A program made the position numbers and the translations under genes. This document shows positions 18,079-56,085 of a DNA stretch of 64,000 nucleotides, piece after piece (the first letter of the stretch is position 1; each line of letters begins with the position of its first letter). The notes below the pieces were generated by a model. The model saw nothing but the letters and a program-made list of their open reading frames with translations. It was not told the DNA's origin and made no database searches. The stretch is from Odontesthes bonariensis (lineage: Eukaryota > Chordata > Actinopteri > Atheriniformes > Atherinopsidae). The DNA lies in NCBI RefSeq assembly GCF_027942865.1, contig NC_134529.1, forward strand, positions 17,350,467 through 17,414,466, written 5' to 3'.

Positions 18079-18324
18079 AAATAAAAAAAATAGAAATAGC
18101 TGGATGCCGACTAACTTGAACAATCAAAAAGAAAACAACAACAAGAAAAGAGCTTTTTATAAAAACTCTCTACCTTTGGAAAAAGTTAGAAAAACTCTGA
18201 ACATTATGAGTATCAGGCATATAAAATGTGCTGTTTTGAGGCCATAACATTACTTGTAATGAGCTTTCTTAATATTCTTTTTTTTTTACTTTTAATAAGC
18301 ATCATGGTCTTCAGAGCTGGCTTT

Positions 18325-19483: not shown

Positions 19484-19786
19484 GTGGGTGACAACTTTAT
19501 GAGCCTAGAGCTCAAGTCTGGAATATTTCTATTTCGGTGACTGGTTCACACTTTACATGTATTTTCACTATAGTCTGTCTCTCTCTCTCTGTCTGTCTGT
19601 CTCTCTCTTTCCCTTTAACCCCTCCGACGTGACTTTTCAGAATCTGGAGATCAGAATTCCCCCCCGAAGTGCCTTGAATTCCAAAAACAAACAAACAAAG
19701 CAGAGACGCAGCGAGGCGCACAGAAACGGGAAAAAAAAAACAGCGTGTTGAATCCCAAACACCTGCCGCTTTCTTCAGGTGAAGCC

Positions 19787-22700
19787 ATGTCTGTTCTGCT
19801 GAGGAAAATAAGGCGCACCGACGCAGCAGCTGCTGCTGTGCTGGAACGTAAGGGACTGCTTTTTAAAAGTGACATAAATAAACTGTAGATACAGTTACAC
19901 AGTGCATGTTTGTGTGCGTCTATGCTTGCATGCACAGATGTGCACGAGACTGTCTTTCAGTCGCAATGTCCAGTCTTGTTTGATATATTATATATATATA
20001 TATTTAAAATCAACCTGTCAATCAAATGCCCGCTGGACAACACATCTGTTATCTGTTACCGCAGGTGCAGACTTTTGCACAGATTCAGAGATCCAGTCAC
20101 TGACTCGAGAAGACCTGCACGAGCTCTTTCCTGGGGCTGAGAACCTCAAGCTTAGAAGGAACATCTTTGGAATGATACACAAACAGGTGAGTTTGTCCTA
20201 TTTGGTGCTGTGCAAAGGTCTTGAGCCACCCACCATTTGTTTTATACTGTGCTAAGAAAACAGGGAATAGGGGCAAACATAAATGTCAATGCAGTTCTAA
20301 CAAGCTTGAAAGGCAATATTTGGCACGAGCGCCTTTATTCTTCAACACAGCCTGAACCCTCTTAGCTTTCTGTCATCTGTCCAGAAGCCTTATTGACCTC
20401 CACTTTTCCAGTTTCCAGAAAATGTTCAAGGACACATTCCACACCATTCTAAGATATGACAAGTTTGAAGCTAATGGTCCATTGGAAATCACTGTATTGG
20501 TGTACATTGCTGTTGTACATTTGAAAAACTTTCTCATCGAAACGACCAGTCTCTAGTGAATGCTTGAATGACACATAGCTCATTGTTTTTTAAGTGGCTT
20601 ATCAAACAGAAAAACACTGAAAATAAGTGTAAAAAAGCAGCCAGTGTCCAAAAAGTATTTTTTAAAGACCCTCAGAGACCAGAGAATTATCGCTCAGGGC
20701 CACTTTAAAGATGACAAGAAAATCGGGCTCATTTGAAGCTAAATACAAAGACATGATGGGTGGCTTAAGACTTTTACATAGTACTCTATGCTTTAGATCT
20801 CATACACTTAAATTGTGCAATGCATACACATGAAATGTCATCAGGATTAATTTATTTTTGTGTTTAATCTGCACAGAAACCAGTTAATGTGCTTCTGAAA
20901 GAACTCCAAGGTTTAATCCCAAGTGATTCTCTCAGGGGTAAGGTTTTTGTTTTGGACTGACATAGTTTGAAAACGCATAAGCAACATTCTTACACGCGCC
21001 CTGACACTTTCTCCCCAGCTGCTCTGTCTACACATGGGGTCTTGGTCGACTACCTTCATATCCTAAAGGACGTGAAGACTCAAGTTCAGAAAGTGCAGAG
21101 TTTCCTTGAAGCTCATATTGGACTACTGGAGGACATCAACAAAGCTCAGGCAGACCAGGAACCTGACAGAGGTTGTTTTATTGTAATTTACAGATTTCAC
21201 GCGGTAAATGTTCCTGGTTGTTTCTCAAAAGAACTCTCACGCGTCCACCTCCGACATGTGGATGCTGTTCTTCTTACAGCGTCAGCAGGAAGTTTTCAGA
21301 CCCTTAATTTCACGCCTCGATTCTTTTTTATCTTTCAGAATCATTTTAACTAATTTACAAAAGGTTTTTGGAGTGTAGATTTACTGAAAATATCTCATTT
21401 ATATTTGCATTCAGACCTCCACTGAGTGCCTGGTTAAGGCACCTTTGAGAGTTGGAAACAAATGACTCCTTTTAAGGGAAACGTTTGTTTGATTGTGTTC
21501 TCTTAAAATGTTTGTTGATTAGTCAGAAATGAACAAGCGATAATCTGTCATTCACCCTCTTAATTACTGACCAAATCAGTAACTGCTGCAAGTTTCGAAC
21601 TTCGTCTTTGGCTCTAGCCACCAAAGGAAGTGGCCTATTTAAAACGATGAGACATTCGGAAGAACGGGAATGTGATTTACAAATGGAGCACCTCGACACA
21701 TTTGGTAGCAAATACAGCCTCAGCTCGTTTTAGACTTAATCCTACGAGCCTGGTGAAGCACTCCTTTGGAAGTCTTTCACATTCTCCTTGATTGAACGTT
21801 CAGTCTTCTTGAGGCTGTATTCTTTTTCCTGAGTTTTTCCAGGAAAAAACGTCCGTTTCGCACCTGAAGTAAATTCAGTACAATTACAGAGATCCCAATA
21901 CAGTACTTTAATTGTGAGCTGCAGCCATTTTGTTGCTTAATGCTGTAGTAAGTGATTGAAAATAACAATATTTCAAATGATATATATGATATTGGCGACT
22001 GTGACTTGGCTGTACTTAAAAAAAATATATATATACTGTATATATTTTTAAAAATTTCTGTAATACAAAGATCACATTACGGATTTTCAAAAATGTTCGA
22101 TATCTCACAAATTCAAACAAATGCAATTTCCTAAAAAGATACATAATCTGAAAATTTGTAAAGCCTCCTGTACATGCATAAAGTTTAAGGTTCACTGACT
22201 CCATCCAATGTTTCCGCTGCCATAATCCACAAATGTAAGTCGCTCAAACACTATCTCATCCTCTCCCTAGCTATGAAAGCTTCTAACCACCTCGAGCACC
22301 GAGCATGTACGATTCAGCGCCTGCATCCACCTGATATCACATGAATGAGGTCCTGTCCTTCATTATGTAGTCACACAGTCCAAAGCTCTGGAAGAAGCTG
22401 TTTACTGAATGTTCAGAATAATATATCACAGACGCACACCACATGGTTGCAGGGTAAATATCCTGCCCTGATTGCTTCTAATCTCATCTTTTTCCAGCTT
22501 CTTGTTTAGTAATATCCCCCCCCCCCCCCCCCCCCGTTGGTTAAAGACAAGGACAGGCAAATCAGGTTGTCAAAAAGGATTCTTACAAAGCTGCAGGACC
22601 AGCTGGGCAGATAAAAAAGTGTCCAAAAAGTGTGAGAATTACATAAGCAGGAGATGATTACTGGAAAGCAATAGTTTAAGTACAGAGAGAAATTGATAAG

Positions 22701-23837
22701 TAAAAATGTGGCAAACTGTGACACCACCATGTCATTGGACCCACAGATGTTTTGCCAGGCGCGAGCACCTCAGCCCTCTGCGCTCCGGTGGAGCCCCACA
22801 ACATCCCAGCTGATATCCATCCATACGGAGCTCAAGGTACATCTCACTTTTTTAAAAATGTTCGCGAAGCACAACTCTGAGCTTGATTTACACTTTGCTC
22901 TTTTATTACATGGAAGAGTTTGTGAATGTCAATGTCTATATCGATGTAACAAAATTGTAAGTTGCAGTGTCCATGTAGAGATTCCATCAAAATAAAGCAC
23001 TTCAACCCCCCTCCCCCCCTTCTGTTGCCTCAGTGATGTACCAGATGGTTGTCAGTGGTAGAACCTTTGATGCCCATCTTCAGTTGATGGCCAAGGTCCA
23101 GGCACAAGTTCAGGACCAGGTCCAGTTCATTTCATGCAGTGAGGATGGCCAGATCATTATTGTCTTCTGCCAAATAAGTTCACGCGCTGGGACAGAAATC
23201 AATACAGCCATCACTAGTTTAAAAGGTAAGAGAGGGACCTTTTTTTTAGCCCACTTTTCAGTTCATTTGTTTGGTTTTTATTTTGAGTTGCAGTCCTGTG
23301 TGCTTGAGATTGTCAACATTAAATAACCAACATTCTTTTGATTTACAGTTGTTTTAGAGATATCCACTAGATATCGCTACTTCTTGTACACTGAACCCTC
23401 CAGCTCAAAGTTCTCCACCCCGACCGTCTCACGCTCCCTCTTTTCATTTGCTCTCCACAGGGGATGTCCCTGTCATTCTGGTGCTGATGCACCAAACCCA
23501 CCAGGTCAAGCACGCAGCAGTGAGAACATGGTCCGACTACTCGAATGTCGTGTTGGACGTCAGTGTTTTCTACCACGAGACAGCCCGTGGATTACTGAGG
23601 TGTCAAGAAAATACCGTGGCCGTCTCTCAGATACTAAGCAAATTACTGGAGTACAGTATTCCGAGATGTAAATGGGATGTGAATGGTGATTATCAGAGGA
23701 CCGGGAGAATTTCTGGAGACAGAGGCTCTCATATTGACAGTGGTGGCAGTGAGTTGGGTTTCAGGTTGTTTAGCGGGAGCAGCAGCAGCAGCAGCAGTGA
23801 TAGTGAAAGTAAAAGTATTTGGGAGGGTGGGGAGTAG
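19787..23837 (+). CDS. Gene A: two-domain protein of unnamed fish family
   Basis: I do not recognise a named gene. Predicted coding exons are 19787-19847, 20065-20186, 20877-20937, 21019-21171, 22759-22836, 23034-23225 and 23461-23837. All have AG/GT borders and the phases join without error to give 347 aa. Residues 21-81 are helical, with SLTREDLHELFPG then LKLRRNIF, which resembles the second half of a SAM domain. Residues about 90-130 are a long helix (VQKVQSFLEAHIGLLEDI). Residues 159-300 alternate hydrophobic strands and helices (IIIVFCQISSRAGTEI, VPVILVLMHQTH, VFYHETARGLLRC), a Rossmann- or TIR-like layout. The tail is Ser-rich. No signal peptide or membrane segment is seen, so it is probably cytosolic. 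AATAAA occurs at 24109. Gene B follows with the same exon plan. Confidence 0.8.
20200..20785. mobile_element. Tc1-like MITE in gene A intron 2
   Basis: The left end reads gtgctgtgcaaaggtcttga followed by gccaccc, and the right end gggtggcttaagacttttac is its near reverse complement. This is a deletion derivative of a Tc1/mariner-type element common in fish. A longer remnant of the same family lies at about 39690-40244, where it forms one side of the tandem-duplication junction. Confidence 0.65.
22516..22535. repeat. Poly-C tract
   Basis: About 20 consecutive C in an intron of gene A. The matching site in unit 2 (about 41626-41633) has only a short C run with one A. Confidence 0.85.
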
Positions 23838-24733
23838 AAGTGGGGACAGAAGAGAAACTGCCGTTACTTTTTTCAATTATGTGATATAGACATTAATAAC
23901 TTCATTGAACTTAATATCAGATCTTTTCTGCTTGCTGATGTAATGCTTTTTAGTTAACATTTCAAATATGGTATCAAGCTTTATATATGTATATATATCC
24001 TTCTATTGGTTTTACTTAACAAAAAAACTAAATAATTATGGCATGAATCAAAAAAGAAAATCACACAATGCCGTTTAACCATGTGCAATTCTATTTAGAA
24101 ATGTAAATAATAAAACATATTCTTGATCCTGATATCCATCTTCTTTGCCTTTTAATACTCAACTTTTGGTGGAATTTTTTTTCTGTTAACATCTAATCAT
24201 GTTGTTGCAGAGTAATATACCAGTGACCAAAAAGGAGGTGTGCGTAATTTCTGATTGAGTTAACAAAAATAATGAAAATACACTGCGCTCGACTTGTGTG
24301 TCAAGTTGAGCTCATGGTTTGTTGGATCAGTTGGTTGTGCGTTCGTGAGAAAGAAAACACTCCCTCTCGAAATGTCGAGAATAAAGTCCACATGTCGACA
24401 ATAAAGTAGAAATGTCGAGAATAAAGTCCACATGACACGTCGACTTTAATCTCGACAGGCAAAATATAAATATTTTTTCTTATGCCTGGCCCTAATACTC
24501 TTCCGTACAAATGTGTTACAAAGGCTTAAAATGAGGTACGTGCCACCTCAGATGAACAACAACACATGGCATATTACACTGTGTTGTTATTTATTTGACA
24601 GAAAGCAAGCCACAAGGCTGAAGCAGTGAGTAAAAAAAAAAAAAAACATTCACGGCAGAAAAAAGTTTGGGCGTCAACTCCTTCGTCCGAGCGCTGCGTC
24701 ACCAGAAGGCAGTCCCTTTGAGTTTGCTTTTGC
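23838..24733. other. Intergenic between genes A and B
   Basis: Holds the gene A 3' UTR with AATAAA at 24109-24114, then a short tandem array of a 16-base motif (aatgtcgagaataaagt type) at about 24370-24430 that is present fewer times in unit 2. The empty site for the unit-2 hAT insertion is gtgtcaag at 24298-24305. Confidence 0.7.
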
Positions 24734-24749
24734 TTTCTGTTTCCTGGAA
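24734..24749. promoter_or_regulatory. ISRE-like core overlapping GAS-like site, gene B
   Basis: On the minus strand 24734-24743 reads GAAACAGAAA, an exact GAAANNGAAA interferon-response core. Bases 24741-24749 read TTCCTGGAA, an exact TTCNNNGAA STAT site. Both sit just before the donor gtgagtac of the probable non-coding first exon of gene B. The same 16 bases occur at 46237-46252. The motifs are seen; interferon control is inference. Confidence 0.45.
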
Positions 24750-25094
24750 ACGGTGAGTACAAATGTTTACATGGACAGACGCATATATCTATAATTATAT
24801 TTCCGAATTTGCTGAGATCATTTACAGCTAACTAACCCACGCTGCTGTCGCACTACTGACACCCCGTTTTTCAGGTAAATTAACCGAAGTAAAGTGCGCT
24901 TTGGTCAGTTCAGGAACCCCTGCCCTCCCCTTTTTGCTGTCTCACGCCGACCTGTTCATGAAGATTTGTCGTCGACTTTTGAACATTTTCAATCCGGACA
25001 AAAGGGAAGACAGAAGAGATAAAAATGCATGCTAAACCCGCGTCATAACTCCGTTGTTTTCTTGCCCTCCGTTTCCGTCTCTGCAGGTGACATC

Positions 25095-28000
25095 ATGTCT
25101 GTTTTACTGAGGGAAATACAACAGATTAATAGAGAGGCTGCCTCTGTACTGGAGAGTAAGTGGCTTTTATTTTAGATGCATAGTGCCTAAACTAGTTCAA
25201 ATAAACTGATATATTGCTTGAATTAACCGCCATGTTCCTTCAGAGGCAGACCTTCGCACTGACTCGGAGATCCAGTCACTGACTCGGGATGAGCTGCACG
25301 AGCTGTTTCCTACGGTTAAGAACTTCAAGCTTAGAAGGACAATCTTTAGGATAATACACAAAGAGGTAGGGCTGAGTGGGAAGGTATCTAATCGGAGTGA
25401 TTTGGAACCTCCAGATTTATATTTATTGTTTGACTTATTTTGTTTGTTTTAGAAACCAGTTGAAGAACTCCTCAGAAAACTGAAACAGTTAATCCCAAAT
25501 GAAAATCTCAGGGGTAAGTAGAGGCTTGATGGCAGTTTAACTTTTTTTTTTTTAAATATATACATATTGAGGCACACTCAATATAATTGTTCTTATTTTG
25601 GCTCTGATATTGGTGTTTGGCTACACTTAGGTGTTTTTGAGCATCATGCAGAGGCTAACTCACTTCTCTCCATCCAGGAGCCCTTACCTACAACGGGGTC
25701 CTGGTTGACGACCTCCAAATCCTGAGGGACATGAAGGATCAAGTGAATCATGTGCAGAGTTTTCTTGAAGCTCATATCAACGTCCTGGAGAGCAGCAGCA
25801 AAGCTCAGCCAGACCAGGAACCTTACACAGGTCATAATGACAGCGTTTTATTTCATTTAAAAGCATACTTCAGTTTGCAGTGAGCAGATTTCCCACAGCT
25901 GATGAGATGCTAATATGCAATCACAGGGGATGTTTGTCCTGGGTGTCTGGGGCTGGATCTCACGTCCAGAGAAATATCTTAAAACGGGATGTGTTCCAAT
26001 TATGCATTGAACTCCAGAAACAGTCATTTTACCTTCATTTATCAGGCGCTTTTAACCAAAGCAGGGATCCATACCCAGCTTGTCTTTCTCACACAACCAA
26101 GGCACGCTTTTACAAATGGTCAGTGCTATGTAACGGACTGTCTGGAACAGGAAAATTCTCACGGAACAGCGGAGGAGCATGAAAATAAGCAGCAAATAAC
26201 TAAACAGCTCACCATTAATAGGTATAAAAATGGCAGGATACGTCTACACATGAAGTGAGCAAAGCTGAGCAAACGCCAGACGATGACCTATCGGAGCAGA
26301 CCTCTTTATAAAGAAAATTTATTTTAAGGTGCACATAAATGAACTCAATATGTGTTTCAATTGCAACCTTTTTAGGAAGAGAAGATAACAGGACGAGCAA
26401 AGGAGATGAAGGGTCCAACAGAGCGATGACACGCCAAAAGAGCCAGGCAGGAAAAGAAGAAAATGGTATCGTATAGATAAGGCACAGAGTTAACAATTTG
26501 TCACAGTTCAGATAAGTTGTTGCACAATATGAGCAGCAACTCTGAGACACAAGGTGGTTGACTTTAAAACTTGACAGTCTTAGCAACATACAGTTCAGCA
26601 TACGACTGTCATCAAAGTCGGGGCTCTAATTTCTTCTTAATGTTTTAATGCTGCTGGTAAGAATACAAATAACAAAGCTGAGGAAAAATGCAGGTTGTAT
26701 TGATTTTCTTTGCATCACACATTGTAAAAAATAACAAAACGTTCGTTGCGAAACATCATTTTTCTTCTCTTAGATACCTTAAAAATTATATAATTCCAGA
26801 GATCGCTGGGCTGGGTTGCACCGCCGGGGGTTTCTCCCGGTGTAACAGTACCAGTACAATGTGTATACAATGTAACAGTACAATGTGTATTTTTAGTGTT
26901 GTGTTGATACGTAGATTTATAAATGCATAGGCTATCTTTTAGTGTTTTTCACCCCCATGTTCATGCCGTTGATTGACACGTTGAGTTACAGAAATCAAAC
27001 CAAACGTGACAAGGTTAAGGGCTCAAGATGTGTTGAGTGCGGCTGTTGGAATGTTCTGGGACCTAGGTAATTCATGTTGAGTTTATTCATTGCAGGTTGT
27101 GTGACCCTGCATATGTTTTACTTTGATTTGTTTTTTTCTACAATTTTGAATGACTAGGCTTATTATGCTGCTGTGTCCAACATGTTTTTCTCGTCAGGTG
27201 CCTCAGCCTCCTCAGCCTCCTTTGGTTGGAAACAATCCACCAAAAGAAAAGCTGCAGACAGCCCACAGCAAGCTCATGGTATATCTCACTTTCTTTCCTT
27301 TTGCAGTCTCCTGACAACAGATTTTTTGCATGTTTCTTCATGTGTTCGTATCATTAGAATACTGTTTACTTTAAAAAGGATTTATAACTCACATTTGCCT
27401 CTTATGAGATTTAATAGTTAGGCAATTAGTTCGGTTCACAAAGTACTTTTTGCTGTAAGTTTCTGTTATTTATTTATTTATTTCACAGAAACACTGAAGT
27501 ACAAGATGGTTGTCAGCGGCAAAACTTTTGGCGCCCATCTTCAGCTACTGGACAAAATACAGAATTCCCTTCAGTTTCACTCGGTCAAACTGGAAGAGAC
27601 CCAGAACAGCGAGGATTACCAGATCGTTATTGTCTTCTGTCCTATAGTGTCACGTTCCACGACGGATGTCAACGAAGCCATGAGGGAAGTTAAAGGTGAG
27701 AGAAAGACTTTTTCTGACCATCTATGCTGAGGAGAAATATCACTCGTCTCCAATCAGACTTTTCAACATTAACATTTTTAAGTTTGGGAATATGGTAGAT
27801 ATAGATTCTTTCTCATGCTCCCTTTCTTTCTATTTCCACAGGTGAAAAGCCTGTCATTCTGGTCTTGATGCATCACTCTCATGAAGCCAAACCCACTACC
27901 TCTAGGAAGGCATGGGATGGTAACCATATTTTGTTGCATGTTGATGTTTTCTACCATGACACAAAGCATGGATTATTAAATTGCAGCCAAAATGAAGACG

Positions 28001-28107
28001 CTGCATCTGCGATAGGGAAAGAATTAATGAAGCACTGTAGTCGTGCTTTTCAAGATGCCAATGAAAATTCCATGAACATGGGGGGGGGGCATTATCAACT
28101 GACATGA
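25095..28107 (+). CDS. Gene B copy 1: paralog of gene A
   Basis: Predicted exons are 25095-25155, 25244-25365, 25453-25513, 25678-25830, 27198-27278, 27489-27695 and 27842-28107. They give 316 aa with the same intron phases as gene A (1,0,1,1,1,1). It begins MSVLLREIQQINREAASVLE. The SAM-like segment is SLTRDELHELFP...LRRTIF, and exon 4 encodes a long helix. Exon 5 is a short basic linker (KQSTKRKAADSPQQ). The C-terminal alpha/beta domain runs through MVVSGKTFGAHLQLL, YQIVIVFCPIVSRSTTDV, EKPVILVLMHHSH and VDVFYHDTKHGLL. The function is unknown; the layout suggests an adaptor- or receptor-type cytosolic protein. The last residues (GGGHYQLT) result from a deletion relative to copy 2, and the stop follows a G-run. 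AATAAA at 28639. Confidence 0.8.
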
Positions 28108-29322
28108 TTATAATTCGAGCCATAGAGATTGAGTTTGGGGAAAGTATAAACTTATTCAAACAAGCTTATTTGCCTCTGGTTTCTATGGAGAACTGAAACC
28201 ACCATGTGCAGGAGTGAATACAAATGTGTATAAAAGGATAAATAAATTAACATGGCAGTGAATGAATAGGATTATTAAAACAAAGCTAAATGAATGCAGA
28301 TGAAAATGAAAATCAGAAAGGTCAGTTTAACACTCTAATTAGTTGCATTTATTTGCATATTAATGTTTTTATTGAGCTCTCTATGTATTTTTGTTTATTT
28401 CTAATTATGACTGTTTCAGTCCTCCTCTTTATGTTTGATCTTGTGCACCACGGTGCTGGGGAAGACTCCATTAAGGATTGGAGTTGCAAAGGAGTGTACC
28501 ATGGTTTCTGGTCGTTATTTAGATGAAAAGAAATTGAAGTTAAAATTAAATTTCTAGTGATTTGTTTTTATGTGTGTTGCCACAAACGTGAAACAACTCT
28601 GTACCATTTATGATGTACAACTGAGTACTTTCAAAACAAATAAATAAACCAGTTCTGAATAATCTGAATCTGCTGGGAAACAACAGTAATTGCTGTCTCT
28701 TGTCTAACTAATCCTGTTTTATTTGAGCTGTATTAGTAATAGTATTTTATATGCTTTTATTCAGTACAGTGTTGGCAGTATTTGGTAGACCAGGCTTTGC
28801 TTTTTCATTCGCTAAGTGCACTGGACTTTTATTTTTTCAAAGTATATATTGCTTTGAAAAGTCAAACCGGAACCTAGATAGTGTTTACAGTTGTTACTTC
28901 CGGTTGCTTGCCACCGATTAGCGCGATACTAACATTTTATTTGTTTGTCACTAGACTGTTCTGTCAAATATCACCGCCAGCGTACTTTTTAAGTGGACGA
29001 CATAATGACAAGTTATCGAAAGGCGTCATCCTGGCTAGTTTTTCTAATTAGCAGCACAACTCCTTAGCGACAGTTAGCTAGTAGCCGTTCAGCTACAGAT
29101 TTTGTGCGGAATGGCAGCTTGATTCATTTCAACAGGTGTTTGCTTAAGGTGAGCAAAGCCAGTGACTTGAAGTTTCTCATTCGTATGTCCTGAAAAGACC
29201 TGTGCGCCAATGGTTTTGCCCCTCTTTAAGGGTTAGTTTGCCGTAGTTAGCTGGGGTATCTCTCCTCGACAGCTGCTAACACCACTTTTTGCGTGACCTA
29301 AAATTCACCACGTTTGTCTGTC
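28108..29322. other. Intergenic, gene B 3' UTR to akap7 promoter
   Basis: Contains the gene B 3' UTR and polyadenylation signals near 28639-28648. The segment from about 28865 to 29322 is the likely akap7 promoter, with ETS-like accggaac and acttccggt motifs near 28866 and 28897 and no TATA box. It is nearly identical at 56086-57657 in unit 2. Confidence 0.55.
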
Positions 29323-32300
29323 ATGATCTTTGGCCGCGTGCTGCTGAGGCTCGGGTTGCAGTGTTCAAAAACTGTTTGTTTACAGAGGATAAATGCCGTG
29401 AATGAGCTGCCTGTTCGGAAGCTGTGCTCTACCAATCGCACTCCAAAAGTCAGCGCGTCCACACCGTCTGCGCACCGGTTGGGACTCCAGGTAATCATCA
29501 TCATCATCATCATCAACTTTATTCCAGACTCAGGGTCCATCTTCAAAAATCAAAACACAGTACACAGACAATACACAAAGACAAACAGAAACACACTTAT
29601 AAAAGACACTTGTACCAGTGTTTCCACATATATGACTGGTATCGCACCGCACTAAGCGCAGGATTTGACAGTAGCATAATAATTTGATTCCATGAACCAT
29701 CCAATCTACAGATAAAACTATACATTAAAATCCTCAACAATGCATGGAATGTGTTAACCCCTACACCACAAAACAATTCACTTGCACTGCTCCACCTGGG
29801 CTTCTTAAGCAGAATGCGCAGCCCATCATTATATGCGACTTGGAGTTTCTGCAGGCTACCCTTTTTATACTTAGCCCACAGGGGGGCAGTATACAGGGGG
29901 GTGCAGTATGCCTTGAACAGGCTAATTTTAACACTATCAGTGCACCAGTGAAACTTTCTTACCAGCATGTTAGCTTGTGCATATAACATGCGGCGCTGCC
30001 TGAAGATGTCATCATCATCACACATTTGATCGGTAATTATATGTCCCAAATACTTTGTTTTGTTATTTACAGGTAAAGCCTGCCCCGCCAAATAAAAAGA
30101 AGGAAAAGTGAGATCCTTGTCCCCCTTACTTTTACATATAAGCACAACAGTTTTCTTGCAGTTGTATTTAACATCAAAAGTCAAACCATAATTGGAACAA
30201 ACATGTAGCATTTCTTGCAGCCCAGTACTGCTGGGGGAGAAGATGGCTAGATCATCGGCATACATGAGATGGTTTAGCAGTGCATTCCCAACCATGCATC
30301 CTGTCCTACAGGCCCTCAGTTGCTCAGACAGGTCATTCATATAAATATTAAAAAGAGCGGGAGAGAGTAATCCACCCTGTCTGACCCCATTTCCCACCCC
30401 AAATGGTGTAGAGAGCACCTCCCCCCATTTGACCTGCATGGTCTGGTTGGCATACCAGTATGACAGGATCCTAATTATACTGTTGGGGACACCCCTCTTT
30501 CTGAGTTTTAAAAACAATTTAAAATGATTAATTCTGTCAAATGCCTTAGACGCATCAATAAAACAAATTAAAATGGAGGAATTCTGTGTTCTGTACATCT
30601 CCACCATCTCCTTAAGAGCAAAAATACATTGATCAGTGCCATGCTTCGGCTTAAAGCCAAACTGATTATCTGTAGTGCTTATAGAGTTATCAAGTCTATC
30701 AAGCAAAATTCTTTCCAGGACCTTGGATAACACACTGGCTAGTGCAATAGGCCTATAGTTATCCAAGCTCCCCACCTTGCCCGCCTTGTCCTTAATAACA
30801 GGCACCAGTGTAACAGACAACATAGTATGAGGCAAAATACCATGAATCATGAGCCCTGTAAAGCATATTGCTAGAAGAATTGCAGCTCTCGGGCTAGCAA
30901 GCTTGAGGTGCTCAGCAGTGATCATATCCTGACCACTAGCTTTGTTATCAGCTAGCTGTGTGATAGCGTGCTGGACCTCCCTACATGTAATTCCCACAGT
31001 GTCACTATTAGCAATATTGTCAACCATGTATACATCACTTTTAACACAGTTAAATAGTTCAGAGTAGTGTTGCTTCCACAACTCCGCTATATTGCTGGCC
31101 CCAGACACCCCTTCAATGGAACATGGCAGTGGTGTATTGACCCGGTTTATATTCTTCACCTCCTTCCAGAAACCATTGACGTCTTTACCAAGAAGTTTGT
31201 CAGCCATAGCGTCTGCTCTCATTGCTTGCTCATGCTTACTGATATATCGAATTGCATATTTATACCTCGCATTAGTATACTTTTTGTGGTCCAAGGCCGG
31301 CCCGTGTCTGGGCCTACCTGCTAGAACCCAGGCCTTGTATGCATTTTTGGCTTCTGCATGAAATGCACTCACATACTTATTCCACCCTGGCTTACTGTTC
31401 TGTCTTTTATTAGAACAAGTAAAGAAAGGCCTACTGGCTTCATACAGTGCTCTAGTAATGGAATTATACATACTACACAAGTCTTCTCTATGTGAGCTAT
31501 CATTACAGTTTACATTAGAACACAGGATTGCATACCTGGATAAGAATGTGTGCTTTAAAAAAATATCAGTTTTCTCAGAGTATAAAAACACATCTTCTCT
31601 TGTGAGCTTAGTCCAGTCCAGCCTAGCATGAGAAACACTGTTCGCTTCTTGTGACAACTCTGGGAGATTATCACAGTCCAGTACCATAACCAGAGGGATA
31701 TGATCAGCCATTGTAACCTCATACACAATCTCCATAGATGTTATTGCAGTATGTGCATCAGCCGTGCTTATGCAGTGGTCAAGCCATGATGTTGAATGCC
31801 AGGCCTCACTAATGTAGGAATAACTTCCTGCAGGAAGGAGTTCATGGCTGGATATTACAAGATTATTGTCATTACAAAATTGCCTTATATGCTTGGCAAA
31901 TAGGGAGCCTTGATGAAATGTAATGTAATGTAATGAAATCGGTGCGTTCAGCTTAAGAAAAGCTCGATCGGTCAGTTAAAATATGTTAACGGATTATATA
32001 CGCGACCCCTTTTTATAGGCTACAACACAGCCCTGTGTCTGTCTGCTAACAGTAAGTGACATGCAGCCAGCCAGCTTCGCCTATAGAAGAGAAACCAATG
32101 TGGTTGTTTCGGATGATGAAGATGACGACGAGGAAGGTGGTGGTGAAAAAGAGGGGGAGATCACCTCAGGCCAGGTGGATGCACTCGGTATGGAGGTCCA
32201 TGAAGGCACCGCAGACACTGGAGTGTCCTGTGAGTAGAGGTGATCTCAGATAATGATGGTGTCTGTCATTATACATTTAACAGCCGAGCTCTTTTCTTGG

Positions 32301-40244: not shown

Positions 40245-42875
40245 CAAAGCTCAGGCAGACCAGGAACCTGACAGAGGTTGTTTTATTGTAATTTACAGAT
40301 TTCACGCGGTAAATGTTCCTGGTTGTTTCTCAAAAGAACTCTCACGTGTCCACCTCCGACATGTGGATGCTGTTCTTCTTACAGCGTCAGCAGGAAGCTT
40401 TCAGACCCTTAATTTCACGCCTCGATTCTTTTTTTTTATCTTTCAGAATCATTTTAACTAATTTACAAAAGGTTTTTGGAGTGTAGATTTACTGAAAATA
40501 TCTCATTTATATTTGCATTCAGACCTCCACTGAGTGCCTGGTTAAGGCACCTTTGAGAGTTGGAAACAAATGACTCTTTTTAAGGGAAACGTTTGTTTGA
40601 TTGTGTTCTCTTAAAATGTTTGTTGATTAGTCAGAAATGAACAAGCGATAATCTGTCATTCACCCTCTTAATTACTGACCAAATCAGTAACTGCTGCAAG
40701 TTTCGAACTTCGTCTTTGGCTGTAGCCACCAAAGGAAGTGGCCTATTTAAAACGATGAGACATTCGGAAGAACGTAAATGTGATTTACAAATGGAGCACC
40801 TCGACACATTTGGTAGCAAATACAGCCTCAGCTCGTTTTAGACTTAATCCTACGAGCCTGGTGAAGCACTCCTTTGGAAGTCTTTCACATTCTCCTTGAT
40901 TAAACGTTCAGTCTTCTTGAGGCTGTATTCTTTTTCCTGAGTTTTTCCAGGAAAAAACGTCCGTTTCGCACCTGAAGTAAATTCAGTACAATTACAGAGA
41001 TCCCAATACAGTACTTTAATTGTGAGCTGCAGCCATTTTGTTGCTTAATGCTGTAGTAAGTGATTGAAAATAACAATATTTCAAATGATATATATGATAT
41101 TGGCGACTGTGACTTGGCTGTACTTAAAAAAAATATATATATACTGTATATATTTTTAAAAATTTCTGTAATACAAAGATCACATTACGGATTTTCAAAA
41201 ATGTTCGATATCTCACAAATTCAAACAAATGCAATTTCCTAAAAAGATACATAATCTGAAAATTTGTAAAGCCTCCTGTACATGCATAAAGTTTAAGGTT
41301 CACTGACTCCATCCAATGTTTCCGCTGCCATAATCCACAAATGTAAGTCGCTCAAACACTATCTCATCCTCTCCCTAGCTATGAAAGCTTCTAACCACCT
41401 CGAGCACCGAGCATGTACGATTCAGCGCCTGCATCCACCTGATATCACATGAATGAGGTCCTGTCCTTCATTATGTAGTCACACAGTCCAAAGCTCTGGA
41501 AGAAGCTGTTTACTGAATGTTCAGAATAATATATCACAGACGCACACCACATGGTTGCAGGGTAAATATCCTGCCCTGATTGCTTCTAATCTCATCTTTT
41601 TCCAGCTTCTTGTTTAGTAATATCCACCCCCCCGTTGGTTAAAGGACAGGGACAGGCAAATCAGGTTGTCAAAAAGGATTCTTACAAAGCTGCAGGACCA
41701 GCTGGGCAGATAAAAAAGTGTCCAAAAAGTGTGAGAATTACATAAGCAGGAGATGATTACTGGAAAGCAATAGTTTAAGTACAGAGAGAAATTGATAAGT
41801 AAAACTGTGGCAAACTGTGACACCACCATGTCATTGGACCCACAGATGTTTTGCCAGGCGCGAGCACCTCAGCCCTCTGCGCTCCGGTGGAGCCCCACAA
41901 CATCCCAGCTGATATCCATCCATACGGAGCTCAAGGTACATCTCACTTTTTTAAAAATGTTTGCGAAGCACAACTCTGAGCTTGATTTACACTTTGCTCT
42001 TTTATTACATGGAAGAGTTTGTGAATGTCAATGTCTATATCGATGTAACAAAATTGTAAGTTGCAGTGTCCATGTAGAGATTCCATCAAAATAAAGCACT
42101 TCAACCCCCCTCCCCCCCCTTCTGTTGCCTCAGTGATGTACCAGATGGTTGTCAGTGGTAGAACCTTTGATGCCCATCTTCAGTTGATGGCCAAGGTCCA
42201 GGCACAAGTTCAGGACCAGGTCCAGTTCATTTCATGCAGTGAGGATGGCCAGATCATTATTGTCTTCTGCCAAATAAGTTCACGCGCTGGGACAGAAATC
42301 AATACAGCCATCACTAGTTTAAAAGGTAAGAGAGGGACCTTTTTTTTAGCCCACTTTTCAGTTCATTTGTTCGGTTTTTATTTTGAGTTGCAGTCCTGTG
42401 TGCTTGAGATTGTCAACATTAAATAACCAACATTCTTTTGATTTACAGTTGTTTTAGAGATATCCACTAGATATCGCTACTTCTTGTACACTGAACCCTC
42501 CAGCTCAAAGTTCTCCACCCCGACCGTCTCACGCTCCCTCTTTTCATTTGCTCTCCACAGGGGATGTCCCTGTCATTCTGGTGCTGATGCACCACACGCA
42601 CCAGGTCAAGCACGCAGCAGTGAGAACATGGTCCGACTACTCGAATGTCGTGTTGGACGTCAGTGTTTTCTACCACGAGACAGCCCGTGGATTACTGAGG
42701 TGTCAAGAAAATACCGTGGCCGTCTCTCAGATACTAAGCAAATTACTGGAGTACAGTATTCCGAGAAGTAAATGGGATGTGAATGGTGATTATCAGAGGA
42801 CCGGGAGAATTTCTGGAGACAGAGGCTCTCATATTGACAGTGGTGGCAGTGAGTTGGGTTTCAGGTTGTTTAGCG

Positions 42876-42906
<31 letters not shown>

Positions 42907-42946
42907 TGATAGTGAAAGTAAAAGTATTTGGGAGGGTGGGGAGTAG
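40245..42946 (+). pseudogene. Gene A copy 2, lacking 5' exons
   Basis: Retains only the last 32 bases of exon 4 (40245-40276), then exons 41858-41935, 42134-42325 and 42561-42946. Splice sites and frame are intact in these exons and the C-terminal domain is unchanged apart from Q to H, C to S and three extra serines in exon 7. Exons 1-3, most of exon 4 and the promoter are absent; a Tc1-like remnant and truncated akap7 lie upstream. AATAAA at 43213. It can be expressed only from a new promoter or as a chimeric transcript, so I call it a probable pseudogene. Confidence 0.8.
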
Positions 42947-46236: not shown

Positions 46237-46252
46237 TTTCTGTTTCCTGGAA
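46237..46252. promoter_or_regulatory. ISRE-like/GAS-like cluster, gene B copy 2
   Basis: Same bases as 24734-24749: GAAACAGAAA on the minus strand (46237-46246) overlapping TTCCTGGAA (46244-46252), immediately before the donor gtgagtac. It is conserved between units, which is expected from recent duplication and so is weak evidence of function. Confidence 0.45.
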
Positions 46253-46593: not shown

Positions 46594-49500
46594 ATGTCTG
46601 TTTTACTGAGGGAAATAAAACAGATTAATAGAGAGGCTGCCTCTGTACTGGAGAGTAAGTGGCTTTTATTTTAGATGCATAGTGCTTAAACTAGTTCAAA
46701 TAAACTGATATATTGCTTGAATTAACCGCCATGTTCCTTCAGAGGCAGACTTTCGCACTGACTCGGAGATCCAGTCACTGACTCGGGATGAGCTGCACGA
46801 GCTGTTTCCTGCGGTTGAGAAGCTCAAGCTGAGAAGGACAATTTTTAGGATAATACACAAAGAGGTAGGGCTGAGTGGGAAGGTATCTAATCGGAGTGAT
46901 TTGGAACCTCCAGATTTATATTTATTGTTTGACTTATTTTGGTTTTTTTAGAAACCAGTTGAAGTGCTCCTCAAGAAACTGAAGCAGTTCATCCCAAATG
47001 AAAATCTCAGGGGTAAGTAGAGGCTTTATGGCAAAAAAAAACCTTTTTTTTTTTTTTTTAAATATATACATAGGCTATTGAGGCATACTCTATATAATTG
47101 TTCTTATTTTGGCTCTGATATTGGTGTTTGGCTACACTTAGGTGTTTTTGAGCATCATGCAGAGGCTAACTCACTTCTCTCCATCCAGGAGCCCTTACCG
47201 GCAACGGGGTCCTGGTCGACTACCTCCAAATCCTGAGGGACATGAAGGATCAAGTGAATCATGTGCAGAGTTTTCTTGAAGCTCATATCAACGTCCTGGA
47301 GAGCAGCAGCAAAGCTCAGCCAGACCAGGAACCTTACACAGGTCATAATGACAGCGTTTTATTTCATTTAAAAGCATACTTCAGTTTGCAGTGAGCAGAT
47401 TTCCCACAGCTGATGAGATGCTAATATACAATCACAGGGGATGTTTGTCCTGGGTGTCTGGGGCTGGATCTCACGACCAGAGAAATATCTTAAAACGGGA
47501 TCTGTTCCAATTATGCATTGAACTCCAGAAACAGTCATTATACCTTCATTTATCAGGCGCTTTTAACCAAAGCAGGGATCCATACCCAGCTTGTCTTTCT
47601 CACACAACCAAGGCACGCTTTTACAAATGGTCAGTGCGACGTAACGGACTGTCTGGAACAGGAAAATTCTCACGGAACAGCGGAGGAGCATGAAAATAAG
47701 CAGCAAATAACTAAACAGCTCACCGTTAATAGGTATAAAAATGGCAGGATACGTCGACACATGAAGTGAGCAAAGCTGAGCAAACGCCAGACGATGAGCT
47801 ATCGGAGCAGACTTAGCAAATTTATTTTTAAGGTGCACATAAATGAACTCAATATGGGTTTCAATTACAACCTTTTTAGGAAGAGAAGATAACAGGACGA
47901 GCAAAGGAGATGAAGGGTCCAACAGAGCGATGACACGCCAAAACAGCCAGGCAGGAAAAGAAGAAAATGGTATCGTATAGATAAGGCTCAGAGTTAACAA
48001 TTTGTCACAGTTCAGATAAGTTGTTGCACAATATGAGCAGCAACTCTGAGACACAAGGTGGTTGACTTTAAAACTTGACAGTCTTAGCAACATACAGTTC
48101 AGCATACGACTGTCATCAGAGTCGGGGCTCTAATTTCTTCTTAATGTTTTAATGCTGCTGGTAAGAATACAAATAACAAAGCTGAGGAAAAATGCAGCTT
48201 GTATTGATTTTCTTTGCATCACACATTGTAAAAAATAACAAAACGTTCATTACGAAACACAATTTTTCTTCTGTTAGATACCTTAAAAATGATGTAACTC
48301 CAGAGATCGCTGGGCTGGACTGGGCTTACACCGGGTTTCTCCCTGTGTATAATGTGTATTTTTAGTGTTATGTTGATTCGTAGATTTATAAATGCATAGA
48401 CTATCTTTTGGTGTTTTTCACCCCCATGTTCATGCCGTTGATTGACACGTTGAGTTACAGAAATCACACCAAACAGTAACACAAAGCTGATCCAAAAACT
48501 TGAACTTACTCAGCTCCCATCTCAAAATCCACAGTTGTGAGAACAGCTGGGGTCTGTTTCACAAAGCAGGTTCAACCAACTCTGAGTCTATTCCTGATCT
48601 CTGAGTTGATCTACTCTGAGATAGAAAACTCTGAGTTTTCGGTTCCAGAAACGCTGATTTGAGTGAGGTTAATCAACTCTGAGTAAGTTCACCTTGAGTT
48701 TTGCGTGTGCACCACAACTTTAAAAAGCCAGCATCAATGGAGCCCCGATTCGACGAGTCACCATGGCAACGGGGAAGAGGAGGGGCTACGCTTTTCACCA
48801 ACCTCGAATTGGAAATCTTAATGCGCTCATACGGCGAGTTTCAATACGTTTTTAGAAATAAGTGCACAGCTGCAGCAGCAAAAGCGTAAGTTTAAATGTA
48901 GTCCTTTGCAATCACAATAATATTACAGGGAAAACTGCTTGAATGGTAGCCCATTCATTTATTTAATTTAGGTGCAATCTCGCGGGGGAGGAGCGCACTT
49001 GGCAGCAGTTTAAAATGAAATATAAAAACATTGGGCCTCATGCAAGAACATTTTCGTATTTTTATTCTAAATTTCTCTCACTTTTTTCGTAAGAAGGTCT
49101 CGTACGAACACGCCACGTCAGATTCAACAAGCGCTCTTAACTTCGGAAAAAGTGTGTAAACGACCTGCGTAAATGATGAATCACACCTGTGCGTATCTTA
49201 AGTTCACGTGCACGAGGATAGTAGATTTGCATACTCCACGCCCTAAATGATACCATATAAGGCTGTGCTTCCTCGCTCCTGTGCCAGGAAGTGTTGAGTG
49301 TTGAGTCATGAGAATGGCATCAAGGCGCAAAAAGAACAACTTTAGAAGGTCTGAGATTAAAGTTCTGCTTTCAGAGATCCAAAAAGGAAAATCTGTCATT
49401 TTTACCAGTGTCAGTAGTGGAATTACGGGACCTGCTAAAGCGAAGAAATGGGAAGCAATTACGAGTGCTGTTTATACCATGTCACCTAAATAAAAAAATA

Positions 49501-52500: not shown

Positions 52501-55500
52501 TTGAGTTCTGTTGAAGACTGGATGCTCGTTGATATTACTCCTCCACCGAACCCGGAAAGAGGACATGTTTGTAGTTCTCTGGCACCGGAAATGCTGCTAG
52601 GTGTATTATCCTGGTTTGCATTTCCGGTGCGAGAGAACTACAAACATGTCCTCTTTCCGGGTTCGGTGGAGGAGTAATATCAACGAACATCCAGTCTTCA
52701 ACAGAACTCAATGGGATTTACAAAATGTCAAATAAAACACAACAGAAGCAACTTTTCGCTACGAAATTTGATATGGATTACCAGTGCACACCAGTAACCA
52801 CTCCGGTGAGTTGATGATTTTGAAAACGGACGTTTATTGTGCTTTTACGGACCTTTTTGGACATGCACATGACTTGCCATTCTGAAGCAGGTTGAGAAGA
52901 ATCAAAATTAGGCAAATACCGGAGACAGCAGTAAACATCAAAAAAGTGGTGAGGGGGGTTCTAAAACATTGCAGACGACTCAGAAAAGAGGCTTAATGTT
53001 GAAAATACCGGAGTTCCCCTTTAAGACTTTTAAACACTGTAAACTGAAAACAAGCCCAGGACCAGACAATATCTCTAGTCGTCTGCTCTCCTGCTGTGCA
53101 TAGCAACTAGGCCCTATTTTTAAACACATTTTTAACCTGTCTCTGGACCTTCAGACAGTGCCTGACTTATGGAAGCAATCCACGATAGTTCCCATTGCTA
53201 AAAACAAGCACCCTAAAACCCTCAATGACTTCAGGCCCATAGCCCTTACCTCTTTGGTAATGAAGTCATTTTAAAGACAAACCACCTGCTTGACCCCCTG
53301 CAATTTGCATATAGAACCAACAGGGGAGTTCAGGATGCTATCATAACCCTGCTGAATCTCATTCTTAAACAGCTTGAGGGCTCAAAGACCCATGTCAGGA
53401 CAATGTTTGTAGATTTTTCATCAGCCTTCAACACCATCCAGCCCCATCTTCTGGTGCAGAAGCTCATCCACCGCTTTCAACTGGACCCCTGCATCTCTGG
53501 CTGGGTCCTTGATTTCCTCACAAATCGTTCTCAGCGAGTGAGAGTAAATGGTCACCATTCTGGATTATCCTTCACATCTACAGGCTCTCCTCAAGGTTGC
53601 GTTTTATCCCCTCTCCTGTACATCCTCTACACTGACGACTGTCGTTCTGACACTGACAATCGCCACATCCTTAAGTTTGCGGACGACACAGTCATTGTCA
53701 GCCTGCTGGAGGATAATGAAACGACACATGGCCCCATCATGGATTATTTTTTAAATTGGTGTCAGGAAGCTATGTTGGAACTAAATGTGTCCAAAACCAA
53801 GGATATGTGCATTGATTTTAGACGCAATACCTGCAACCCCACCACAACCAAGTTAAATGGACAGGACATTGAAATTGTTCAACAGTACAAATACCTAGGC
53901 TCCATTATTGACGACAAATTGACTTTTAACAGTAACACGGACTTGTTGTGCAAGAAAGGGCAGCAGCGCTTGTATTGTCTCAGAAAGCTGGGTAGGTTCC
54001 ATGTTGATAAGTCTCTAATGATTATGTTTTATAGATCCTTTATTGAATCCATACTCACCTATTCTGCCATCTGCTGGTATGCTTTTTTACTTAATGTGAA
54101 AAACAAAAATGGCATATCTAAGATCATCAGAGTAAGCAGTAACATAACCGGTGCTCAACAGAAAAGCTTGACTGCTTTATATGAAGAACAGGTAATCAGG
54201 AAGGCTGAATCTATTTTGGACAATTACACTCATCCTCTGCACAGTGAATTTCAGCTTTTACCCTCTGGTTCCCGTTTTAAATATCCACTAGCCCGGACAA
54301 ACAGATACAAGCACTCTTTTATACCCTCCGCTGTTCAGCTGCTTAACTCCACTAAGAAATGCAGATAGCCATATGTCAGGTTGTGTATTTATTTATTTTC
54401 TAGGTAGGTCTAGTTTTTTATACTGTGTATCTCACTTCTCCATAGCATTTTTATCTTTAAATCTTACACTGTGCAACCCCCCCTAACCCAAAAAATGTAT
54501 TTATTCAATATTATTTTTATTATTTTTATTCTTTTTATCTTTTACAAGTTTTATAATGTCTTGTGGAAGTATGTGAGTGTATGCGTGTGTACTACTGCTG
54601 CAAAACAATTGCCCAAGTTGGGACAAATAAAGTTACTTACTTACTTACTTACTTACTTGTTGAGTGCGGCTGTTGGAATGCTCTGGGAAAACCTAGGTAA
54701 TTCATGTTGAGTTTATTCATTGCAAGTTGTGTGACCCTGGCTTCAGGGTAAAAGTCATCTTGATATAGAGAAAAGCCCTACATATGTTTTACTTTGATTT
54801 GTTTTTTTCTACAATTTTGATTGAGTAGGCTTATTATGCTGCTGTGTTCAACATGTTTTTCTCTCCAGGTGCCTCAACTGCCTCTGGGGGGATGCTTTCC
54901 CCCAATAAAGAAACTGAAATCAGCCCACAGCAAGCTCATGGTATATCTCACTTTCTCTCCTTTTGCAGTCTCCCGACAGCAGATTTTTGCATGTTTCTTC
55001 ATGTGTTCGTATCATTAGAATACTGTTTAGTTTAAAAAGGATTTATAACTCACATTTCTACAATTTTGAATGAGTAGGCTTATTATGCTGCTGTGTTCAA
55101 CATGTTTTTCTCGCCAGGTGCCTCAACTGCCTCTGGAGGGAAACAATCCATCAAAAGAAAAACTGCAGACAGCCCACAGCAAGCTCATGGTATATCTCAC
55201 TTTCTTTCCTTTTGCAGTCTCCTGACAACAGATTTTTTGCATGTTTCTTCATGTGTTCGTATCATTAGAATACTGTTTACTTTAAAAAGGATTTATAACT
55301 CACATTTGCCTCTTATGAGATTTAATAGTTAATCAATTAGTTCGGTTCACAAAGTACTTTTTGCTGTAAGTTTCTGTTATTTATTTATTTATTTCACAGA
55401 AACACTGAAGTACAAGATGGTTGTCAGCGGCAAAACTTTTGGCGCCCATGTTCAGCTACTGGACAAAATACAGAATTCCTTTCCGTTTCGCTCGGTCAAA

Positions 55501-56085
55501 CTGGAAAAGACCCAGAACAGCGAGGATTACCAGATCGTTATTGTCTTCTGTCCTATAGTGTCACGTTCCACGACGGATGTCAACGAAGCCATGAGGGAAG
55601 TTAAAGGTAAGAGAAAGACTTTTTTTCTGACCATCTATGCTGAGGAGAAATATCACTCGTCTCCAATCAGACTTTTCAACATTAACATTTTTAAGTTAAG
55701 GAATATGGTAGATATATATTGGAGCTTTTAAAACCTTCTTTCTCATGCTCCTTTTCTTTCTATTTCCACAGGTGAAAAGCCTGTCATTCTGGTCTTGATG
55801 CATCACTCTCATGAAGCCAAACCTTCTACCTCTAGGAGGACATGGGATGGTAACCATATTTTGTTGCATGTTGATGTTTTCTACCATGAGACAAAGCATG
55901 GATTATTAAATTGCAGCCAAAATGAAGACGCTACATCTGCGATAGGGAAAGAATTAATGAAGCACTGTAGTCACGCTTTTCAAGATGCCAATGAATATTC
56001 CATGAACCCGGGTGCTCATAACATGAGCCCCAGTCCAACTCATAAGAACCCCAACCTACCCAATTGGTTTCCTAACATTTTTTAG
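46594..56085 (+). CDS. Gene B copy 2, with duplicated exon 5
   Basis: Exons are 46594-46654, 46743-46864, 46952-47012, 47189-47341, 54869-54940 (5a), 55118-55189 (5b), 55400-55606 and 55772-56085. All phases agree. It encodes 353 aa with both exons 5, or 329 aa with one. It is the same family as gene A: SAM-like N-terminus (SLTRDELHELFPAVEKLKLRR), long helix, short linker, Rossmann/TIR-like C-terminus (YQIVIVFCPIVSR, KPVILVLMHHSH, VFYHETKHGLL). Its C-terminus (MNPGAHNMSPSPTHKN...NIF) is longer than in copy 1 and probably ancestral. Intron 4 has grown to 7.5 kb by Harbinger and LINE insertions. AATAAA at 56991. No damage to the coding exons is seen. Confidence 0.8.
48738..49032 (+). pseudogene. 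Harbinger Myb/SANT-like protein, N-terminal part
   Basis: The first exon (48738-48888) encodes MEPRFDESPW...TLFTNLELEILMRSYGEFQYVFR and ends at a donor gtaag. The frame resumes near 48971 with CNLAGEERTWQQFKMKYKNI, the tryptophan-containing helix of the Myb/SANT-like fold. The rest is lost where the sequence changes at about 49035. This DNA-binding partner is the second gene of Harbinger elements. Confidence 0.6.
49308..49493 (+). pseudogene. Second Myb-like fragment of Harbinger type
   Basis: 61 codons: a basic start MRMASRRKKNNFRRSEIKV then LLSEIQKGKSVIF and GPAKAKKWEAITSAVYTMSP. It looks like the first part of a Myb/SANT-like domain from a different Harbinger family than the fragment at 48738. 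It is truncated. Confidence 0.5.
49520..49750 (-). pseudogene. HARBI1-like transposase remnant
   Basis: A short minus-strand frame with VVERTELKARWVCLDTSF and then HERGSPPEPAQAD, which resembles the C-terminal end of Harbinger DDE transposases (VVER...RWxCLD then a HN/GxPxPEP region). Only a fragment remains. Confidence 0.45.
50898..51854 (+). pseudogene. LINE endonuclease domain, broken
   Basis: Reads LPSIILANAQSLRNKTDDL, ALTETWLGEKDTD, GGGVCLYINEHW, an in-frame stop at 51213, then PREFPQIFVTVVYIHP, NLILGDFNHCSL and LGSADHNAVHLIP. These are the expected order of AP-endonuclease motifs (N, ETW, GDFN, SDH). A frameshift follows near 51850. Confidence 0.85.
52192..53020. mobile_element. 829-bp TTAA foldback element inside the LINE
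   Basis: Two arms of about 400 bp are near-perfect reverse complements around a centre near 52605. Ends are aggggaactgcggtatttt and its complement. TTAA stands at both ends (52188-52191 and 53021-53024). It interrupts the LINE reverse transcriptase region; LINE coding sense continues on the far side in the same register if one TTAA and the insert are ignored. There is no ORF of note. Confidence 0.9.
53403..54368 (+). pseudogene. LINE reverse transcriptase, C-terminal two-thirds
   Basis: 321 codons beginning MFVDFSSAFNTIQPHLL (motif A), then STGSPQGCVLSPLLYILYTD (motif B), ILKFADDTVIVSLL (motif C, FADD) and a thumb region with YKYLGSIIDDKLTF. The frame is open from motif A to the natural stop, but the upstream fingers region is separated by stops and the foldback insertion. 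Confidence 0.88.
54631..54657. repeat. (ACTT)n LINE tail
   Basis: Six tandem acttactt-type units form the 3' end of the plus-strand LINE. Confidence 0.88.

What the first reader, a model, noticed from the sequence alone, without database searches (positions are those of the whole stretch)
19787..28107. Unnamed two-domain fish gene family (genes A and B): SAM-like plus Rossmann/TIR-like
Three gene-size copies share seven-exon structure, identical intron phases and a C-terminal signature VIVFC.IVSR..T(D/E)(V/I)N then PVILVLMH. I recall the same signature in many unnamed teleost proteins but know no assigned function. A helical interaction domain followed by a TIR-like alpha/beta fold, in tandem copies, is the layout of innate immune or cell-death signalling proteins. 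This is the best candidate here for an undescribed system.
Basis: partly seen in the sequence, partly recalled or inferred. Interest (0 to 1): 0.85.

Follow-up and report, generated by a model that had tools for sequence, protein, structure and literature searches.

The report
Fish genes sharing a virus-borne domain
Two neighbouring fish genes of unknown function, and duplicates of them nearby, end in a protein domain absent from the family and solved-structure libraries searched, whose predicted shape matches parts of the polyproteins of two unrelated fish RNA viruses, so the genes may take part in a host-virus contest.

Summary
The genes are real. Gene A (347 aa) and gene B (316 aa) each have seven coding exons with intron phases 1,0,1,1,1,1. 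A third full-size copy (B', 353 aa, exon 5 doubled) and a truncated copy (A') lie downstream in a duplicated segment. A and B are 51% identical and look constrained. In this 945 Mb genome the N-terminal region was found only in the window; the C-terminal domain also occurs at three other loci, two of which end in a hydrophobic, tail-anchor-like segment. Pfam, NCBIfam, PHROGs and PDB sequence searches gave nothing convincing. AlphaFold2 models of two paralogs show a Rossmann-like fold; PDB matches are generic. Among predicted viral proteins both models rank the same two fish RNA virus polyproteins first: a nidovirus (Chinook salmon bafinivirus; E 2.8e-9 and 1.6e-6) and a calicivirus (Wenling yellow goosefish calicivirus; E 1.3e-3 and 9.0e-4), at probability 1.00. 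Best reading: an undescribed innate antiviral family whose C-terminal domain is shared with fish RNA viruses. SAM was not supported; TIR was not distinguished from other Rossmann-like folds. The immune role is inferred, not shown.

The parts
19787..19847 (+). gene A exon 1 (coding start ATG at 19787)
20065..20186 (+). gene A exon 2 (N-terminal region, helical by eye)
20877..20937 (+). gene A exon 3
21019..21171 (+). gene A exon 4 (helical by eye)
22759..22836 (+). gene A exon 5 (linker)
23034..23225 (+). gene A exon 6 (first half of Rossmann-like domain; FCQISSRAGTE motif)
23461..23837 (+). gene A exon 7 (second half of Rossmann-like domain plus Ser-rich tail; stop at 23835-23837)
25095..25155 (+). 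gene B exon 1
25244..25365 (+). gene B exon 2
25453..25513 (+). gene B exon 3
25678..25830 (+). gene B exon 4
27198..27278 (+). gene B exon 5 (linker)
27489..27695 (+). gene B exon 6 (first half of Rossmann-like domain)
27842..28107 (+). gene B exon 7 (second half of Rossmann-like domain, stop)
40245..42946 (+). truncated copy A': end of exon 4, then exons 5-7 (41858-41935, 42134-42325, 42561-42946); exons 1-3 and most of exon 4 not found
46594..47341 (+). gene B' exons 1-4 (46594-46654, 46743-46864, 46952-47012, 47189-47341)
54869..54940 (+). gene B' exon 5, first copy
55118..55189 (+). gene B' exon 5, second copy
55400..55606 (+). gene B' exon 6
   Evidence: folded with exon 7
55772..56085 (+). 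gene B' exon 7 and stop
24734..24743 (-). interferon-response-element-like GAAANNGAAA upstream of gene B (kept in B' at 46237-46246; a different one upstream of A at 19526-19535); lead only

Best explanation
Genes A, B and B' belong to a small, undescribed fish gene family: a helical N-terminal interaction region joined by a short linker to a Rossmann-like domain for which no Pfam family was found. The Rossmann-like domain is the more widespread part: it stands at three other loci where no N-terminal region was found, and at two of them it ends in a tail-anchor-like hydrophobic segment. The same domain family sits inside the polyproteins of at least two unrelated fish RNA viruses. Most likely mechanism (inferred): the host proteins act inside the cell in antiviral innate immunity, with the N-terminal region mediating self- or partner assembly and the Rossmann-like domain binding a small ligand or protein partner through its conserved GxT, FCPIxSRxxTD, MHH and LLxCxxN motifs; fish RNA viruses carry copies that imitate or titrate it. 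Shown: gene structures, constraint, paralogy, Rossmann-like fold in predictions, viral structural matches from two models. Inferred: common descent with the viral segments, direction of transfer, immune role, ligand pocket, decoy role.
For: Gene models and shared phases; constraint between A and B. Paralogous C-terminal domains at C17, C28 and twice at C29:6.5 Mb, with hydrophobic tails at C17 and the first C29:6.5 Mb copy. The 18 invariant columns of five aligned members include G, T, F-C, S-R, T, M-H, C and N. AlphaFold2: C28 paralog pLDDT 70.6, pTM 0.71; B' pLDDT 52.4, pTM 0.55, same order of main elements. Viral structure library: bafinivirus pp1ab E 2.8e-9, prob 1.00, TMq 0.65, 24% identity over 170 columns, and goosefish calicivirus E 1.3e-3, prob 1.00; the same two rank 1 and 2 for B' (E 1.6e-6 and 9.0e-4, prob 1.00). 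The next rows by E-value are at 0.030 and 0.043. Taxonomy puts the two viruses in different orders. Weak leads: interferon-element-like sites upstream of A, B and B'; B/B' coding parts differ at 37 of 846 sites, introns plus upstream DNA at 15 of 1076 (p 9e-5).
Against: No expression, interferon or infection data. No viral sequence was read: the match rests on structure comparison by one program with two models whose alignments share the same paralog rows, and both models hold an in-frame intron (34 and 55 residues). In the C28 model part of the intron is modelled as a helix at moderate confidence while the conserved SR..TD stretch (about residues 51-64) is partly under pLDDT 50, so the model may hold the intron where the real helix belongs. 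The B' model is low-confidence. Against introns alone the B/B' coding excess is not significant (37 of 846 versus 11 of 482, p 0.065), and synonymous sites are raised too (10 of 180), so gene conversion fits as well as selection. GAAANNGAAA is over-represented across the whole window (15 versus 5.7 expected), so the upstream sites are weak. The N-terminal region was not folded and has no identified relative. Only one genome was examined.
Confidence: 0.42

Rival explanations
1. The C-terminal domain is an ordinary small-molecule-binding Rossmann-like protein (nucleotide, FMN or NAD related) with a housekeeping or metabolic role; fish viruses took it up for replication, not for immune evasion.
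Against: No enzyme family matched at a convincing level in Pfam or NCBIfam. Recent tandem and segmental duplication is more usual for conflict genes (general knowledge). No classical P-loop is seen by eye.
Confidence: 0.25
2. The domain is a true TIR (or TIR-like) domain acting as a signalling adaptor or NADase.
Against: No TIR profile match listed in Pfam up to E 10. The TIR rows are tied with many unrelated Rossmann folds. No acidic residue is among the 18 invariant columns of five members.
Confidence: 0.12
3. The flow ran the other way: the host family derives from a viral domain that entered the fish genome and was kept.
For: Shared domain between host and two viruses; three reverse-transcriptase frames in the window as a possible route.
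Against: Host copies at four loci share an intron at the same place inside the domain, and members are 31-39% identical to the C17 one, pointing to an old, intron-bearing host gene.
Confidence: 0.08
4. The viral matches are convergence or a modelling artefact and the genes are simply fast-evolving lineage-specific genes of unknown role.
For: Low-to-moderate model confidence, intron read-through in the models, no sequence confirmation; four relative searches of the viral contig collection found none, nor did two motif patterns.
Against: The same two fish viruses lead both searches at probability 1.00, against E 0.030 or more for other rows, from paralogs 34% identical.
Confidence: 0.13

Closest known systems
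Segment of replicase polyprotein 1ab of Chinook salmon bafinivirus (A0A2P1GMV5_1; Tobaniviridae)
   Same: Best structural match of both paralog models: E 2.8e-9 / 1.6e-6, prob 1.00, 24% / 17% identity, TMq 0.65 / 0.50.
   Different: Part of a viral polyprotein; its position and role inside the polyprotein were not read here; no evidence on the helical N-terminal region.
Segment of genome polyprotein of Wenling yellow goosefish calicivirus (A0A2P1GMK5_1; Caliciviridae)
   Same: Second match in both searches: E 1.3e-3 / 9.0e-4, prob 1.00.
   Different: Weaker (14% / 17% identity, TMq 0.52 / 0.48); different virus order from the bafinivirus.
TIR domain
   Same: Alternating strand/helix fold; interaction-plus-Rossmann layout (layout recalled).
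   Different: No TIR profile match listed; structural scores tied with many other Rossmann folds.
Flavodoxin-like / NADPH-dependent FMN reductase fold
   Different: 14% identity, generic-level score; no matching sequence family.
SAM (sterile alpha motif) domain
   Same: By eye, exon 2 resembles the second half of a SAM domain (recalled motif).
   Different: No SAM match in Pfam, PDB sequence profile or the genome-wide SAM_1 search.

Membership tests
TIR domain | Sequence match to a TIR profile | tested here: not met
   No TIR family among Pfam matches up to E 10 for A and B and five C-terminal members; HMMER filters drop weak matches, so a distant TIR could escape.
TIR domain | TIR fold clearly preferred over other Rossmann folds | tested here: inconclusive
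TIR domain (NADase) | Conserved catalytic glutamate | tested here: inconclusive
   Among the 18 invariant columns of five members there is no acidic residue; which column would correspond was not established.
SAM domain | Sequence match to a SAM profile | tested here: not met
   No SAM in Pfam up to E 10 for A and B or three N-terminal parts; none of 150 scored of 186 candidate SAM_1 places lies in the window genes. Distant SAM domains could escape.
SAM domain | Five-helix SAM fold | not tested
Domain shared with fish nidovirus/calicivirus polyproteins | Structural match clearly above the other rows | tested here: met
   Ranks 1 and 2, prob 1.00, in both searches; next rows E 0.030 and 0.043. 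Other rows reach prob 0.98 (A0A8F0WPF4_2, E 0.18) and 0.77 (a tupanvirus protein, E 0.07).
Domain shared with fish nidovirus/calicivirus polyproteins | Sequence-level homology in an alignment | not testable with these tools
   The viral sequences were not found in the collections offered; Foldseek gave only percent identity.
Interferon-stimulated gene | Induction by interferon or virus | not testable with these tools
   No expression data; only GAAANNGAAA sites upstream.

The most novel reading that the evidence does not exclude
An undescribed Rossmann-like innate-immunity domain of fish has been acquired independently by at least two unrelated lineages of fish positive-strand RNA viruses (a nidovirus and a calicivirus), marking an unrecognised fish antiviral pathway that viruses counter by mimicry.
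Probability: 0.35. Interest if true: 0.87.

Novelty: new variant of a known kind. Interest (0 to 1): 0.62.

Why it matters
Domains shared between a host family and unrelated viruses of the same hosts have often pointed to real immune pathways (recalled, general knowledge). Here the host genes have no domain in Pfam that was found and no function that I could find, and the viral segments had no function stated in the passages read. If right, it gives one testable handle on both sides: a fish defence family, and an unexplained segment of nidovirus and calicivirus polyproteins of fish.

Tried and rejected
Sequence libraries: Pfam, PDB sequences, NCBIfam and PHROGs gave only weak, unshared matches; the best were AcMNPV_P18 at 0.011 for B, Ribosomal_S13 at 0.026 for the N-terminal part and a VapC-family model at 0.037 for one of five members. 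PADLOC gave one match, DpdE at E 9.8e-4 and 15.1 bits over 63 residues against a 1091-position model, for one of five members (gene A); rejected as a local match not shared by relatives. tblastn against phages: none. Viral contigs: four relative searches and two motif patterns found none. Prokaryote genomes, one scan: none.

A motif pattern in the own genome gave 15 matches against 3 for the reversed control; of the 12 read, only the known C17 gene is a relative; of the three not read one is A'. The family is small here as far as searched: eight C-terminal domains (A, A', B, B', C17, C28 and two at C29:6.5 Mb) at four loci.

No TIR is among the 50 rows shown for B'; that excludes nothing. Nucleoside deoxyribosyltransferase-like identity was considered because of the GTD-x-x-A pattern (recalled); the only such row I saw is at E 1.4, so it was dropped. 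The third viral record (A0A8F0WPF4_2) is unnamed and is not among the 50 rows shown for B'. My first exon-3 boundary for B' was off by one (also its B/B' rates) and was corrected; the B/B' rates quoted are. One search used 10 instead of 11 differing intron sites; one search repeats the tests with 11, which weakens the comparison with introns alone (p 0.065 instead of 0.03). For the C-terminal B/B' count I used the first 150 codons and dropped the diverged tail; all 156 aligned codons give 34 differences. Some rows have titles naming toxin or effector complexes; they were not followed.

Papers: ten searches (searches found no paper) listed no title about this family or about a domain shared by these viruses. 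Passages only were seen of PMC7290303, PMC9230003, PMC13200540, PMC13185587 and PMC13030082.
Full report
What is there. The finding's coordinates hold two complete genes on the + strand. Gene A (19787-23837) encodes 347 aa and gene B (25095-28107) 316 aa, both in seven coding exons with AG/GT junctions and phases 1,0,1,1,1,1. A later segmental duplication copied both: blastn shows 21140-24305 again at 40245-43401 (98%) and further blocks of the B region between 45904 and 56007 (88-96%). In the A copy (A') exons 1-3 and most of exon 4 were not found. The B copy (B') is complete, 353 aa, with exon 5 doubled; its fourth intron holds a reverse-transcriptase frame.

Are they genes under constraint? 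A and B are 51% identical over 307 codons with Ka/Ks 0.40. By part: N-terminal 63% identity, Ka 0.247, Ks 0.562, ratio 0.44; C-terminal 45%, Ka 0.480, Ks 1.723, ratio 0.28. B and B' are recent: introns 1, 2, 3 and 6 differ at 11 of 482 sites and the 600 bases upstream at 4 of 594, while the compared coding parts (132 N-terminal and the first 150 C-terminal codons) differ at 37 of 846. The excess is p 0.065 against introns and 9e-5 against introns plus upstream; synonymous sites are raised too (10 of 180). B/B' Ka/Ks is 0.56 in the N-terminal part and about 1 in the C-terminal part. At the 18 differing N-terminal sites B' agrees with A at 10, B at 6 and neither at 2. Gene conversion from an A-like copy, or fast selected change, would both give this.

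Family in the genome. Own-genome searches with A, B and three other members found the C-terminal domain at C17 (one), C28 (one), C29:6.5 Mb (two) and in the window (A, A', B, B'), eight in all. The tool scores only its best candidates, so this is a lower bound; a motif pattern added no relative among the 12 of 15 matches read. With an N-terminal query all ten scored places lie in the window. Exons 6 and 7 meet at the same place at all loci, in phase 1 as read from the frames. The C17 product and the first C29:6.5 Mb product end in a hydrophobic 19-residue stretch (mean hydropathy 1.42 and 2.53); the tails of A, B, B' and C28 reach 0.62, -0.06, -0.19 and 0.91. This looks like a tail anchor (inference).

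The viral matches. Against predicted structures of viral proteins the C28 model matches a segment of replicase polyprotein 1ab of Chinook salmon bafinivirus at E 2.8e-9, prob 1.00, TMq 0.65, rmsd 3.4, 24% identity over 170 columns, then the genome polyprotein of Wenling yellow goosefish calicivirus at E 1.3e-3, prob 1.00; the next row is at E 0.030. A third, unnamed record (A0A8F0WPF4_2) matches over 53 columns with prob 0.98 but E 0.18. The B' model, from the window itself, gives the same two at ranks 1 and 2, E 1.6e-6 and 9.0e-4, prob 1.00, with the next row at E 0.043; the highest probability among the other rows shown is 0.77. The unnamed third record is not among the 50 rows shown for B'. 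The two viruses belong to Nidovirales (Tobaniviridae) and Picornavirales (Caliciviridae); both names point to fish hosts. I could not read the viral sequences, so homology is supported by structure only, and where in each polyprotein the segment lies is not established: the record names carry the suffix _1, whose numbering I do not know.

A possible connection in print: a goldfish isolate of the bafinivirus lacks 537 and 480 nt of ORF1a relative to another isolate, at positions 1709-2246 and 4148-4628, the first in a region called highly variable (PMC7290303, passages). These lengths equal 179 and 160 codons, near the size of this domain, and may or may not overlap it. In the passages seen the word 'domain' does not occur in the main text.

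How it may work. The conserved residues (G, T; F-C, S-R, T; M-H; C, N) follow predicted strands, the usual place of a ligand pocket in Rossmann-like folds (inference). The N-terminal region of B is 92% identical to B' and 63% to A, has no identified family, and by eye is helical. A protein with an interaction region plus a Rossmann-like domain, in recent duplicates, with the same domain in fish viruses, is most simply read as part of a host-virus contest. GAAANNGAAA sites lie about 250-360 bases upstream of the start codons of A, B and B', but the window holds 15 against 5.7 expected, so this is weak. No step of the immune reading was tested directly.

Novelty: an apparently undescribed domain family of a known fold, in a known kind of host-virus overlap.

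Noticed in passing
window 14350-18123 (-): A 1258-aa open frame with endonuclease, reverse transcriptase and zf-RVT domains: a long LINE-type ORF (label recalled).
   Followed up: partly
window 29597-31972 (-) and 53229-54365 (+): Two further reverse-transcriptase frames; the second lies in intron 4 of gene B' (47342-54868, 7.5 kb, against 1.4 kb in B) and accounts for part of its length.
   Followed up: partly
window 37279-38127: A 219-aa open frame with near-identical inverted ends (nearly the same peptide is read on both strands), resembling P2X7-receptor C-terminal-like proteins (recalled, by eye); no Pfam match at E 0.01.
   Followed up: no
window 29302-29500 and 56422-57830: Possible start of another gene just downstream of B, in a stretch copied along with it in the duplicated segment (28090-29495 at 56422-57830, 94%).
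   Followed up: no
L009 4070-4823 (-): C17 paralog may be a short stand-alone tail-anchored version of the domain: a frame opening with MGTVKIHK plus one further exon ending in a membrane-like segment.
   Followed up: partly
window 24753 and 25087: A good splice donor after TTTCCTGGAAACG and an acceptor just before the ATG of gene B suggest a non-coding first exon ending at the interferon-element-like site (by eye).
   Followed up: no
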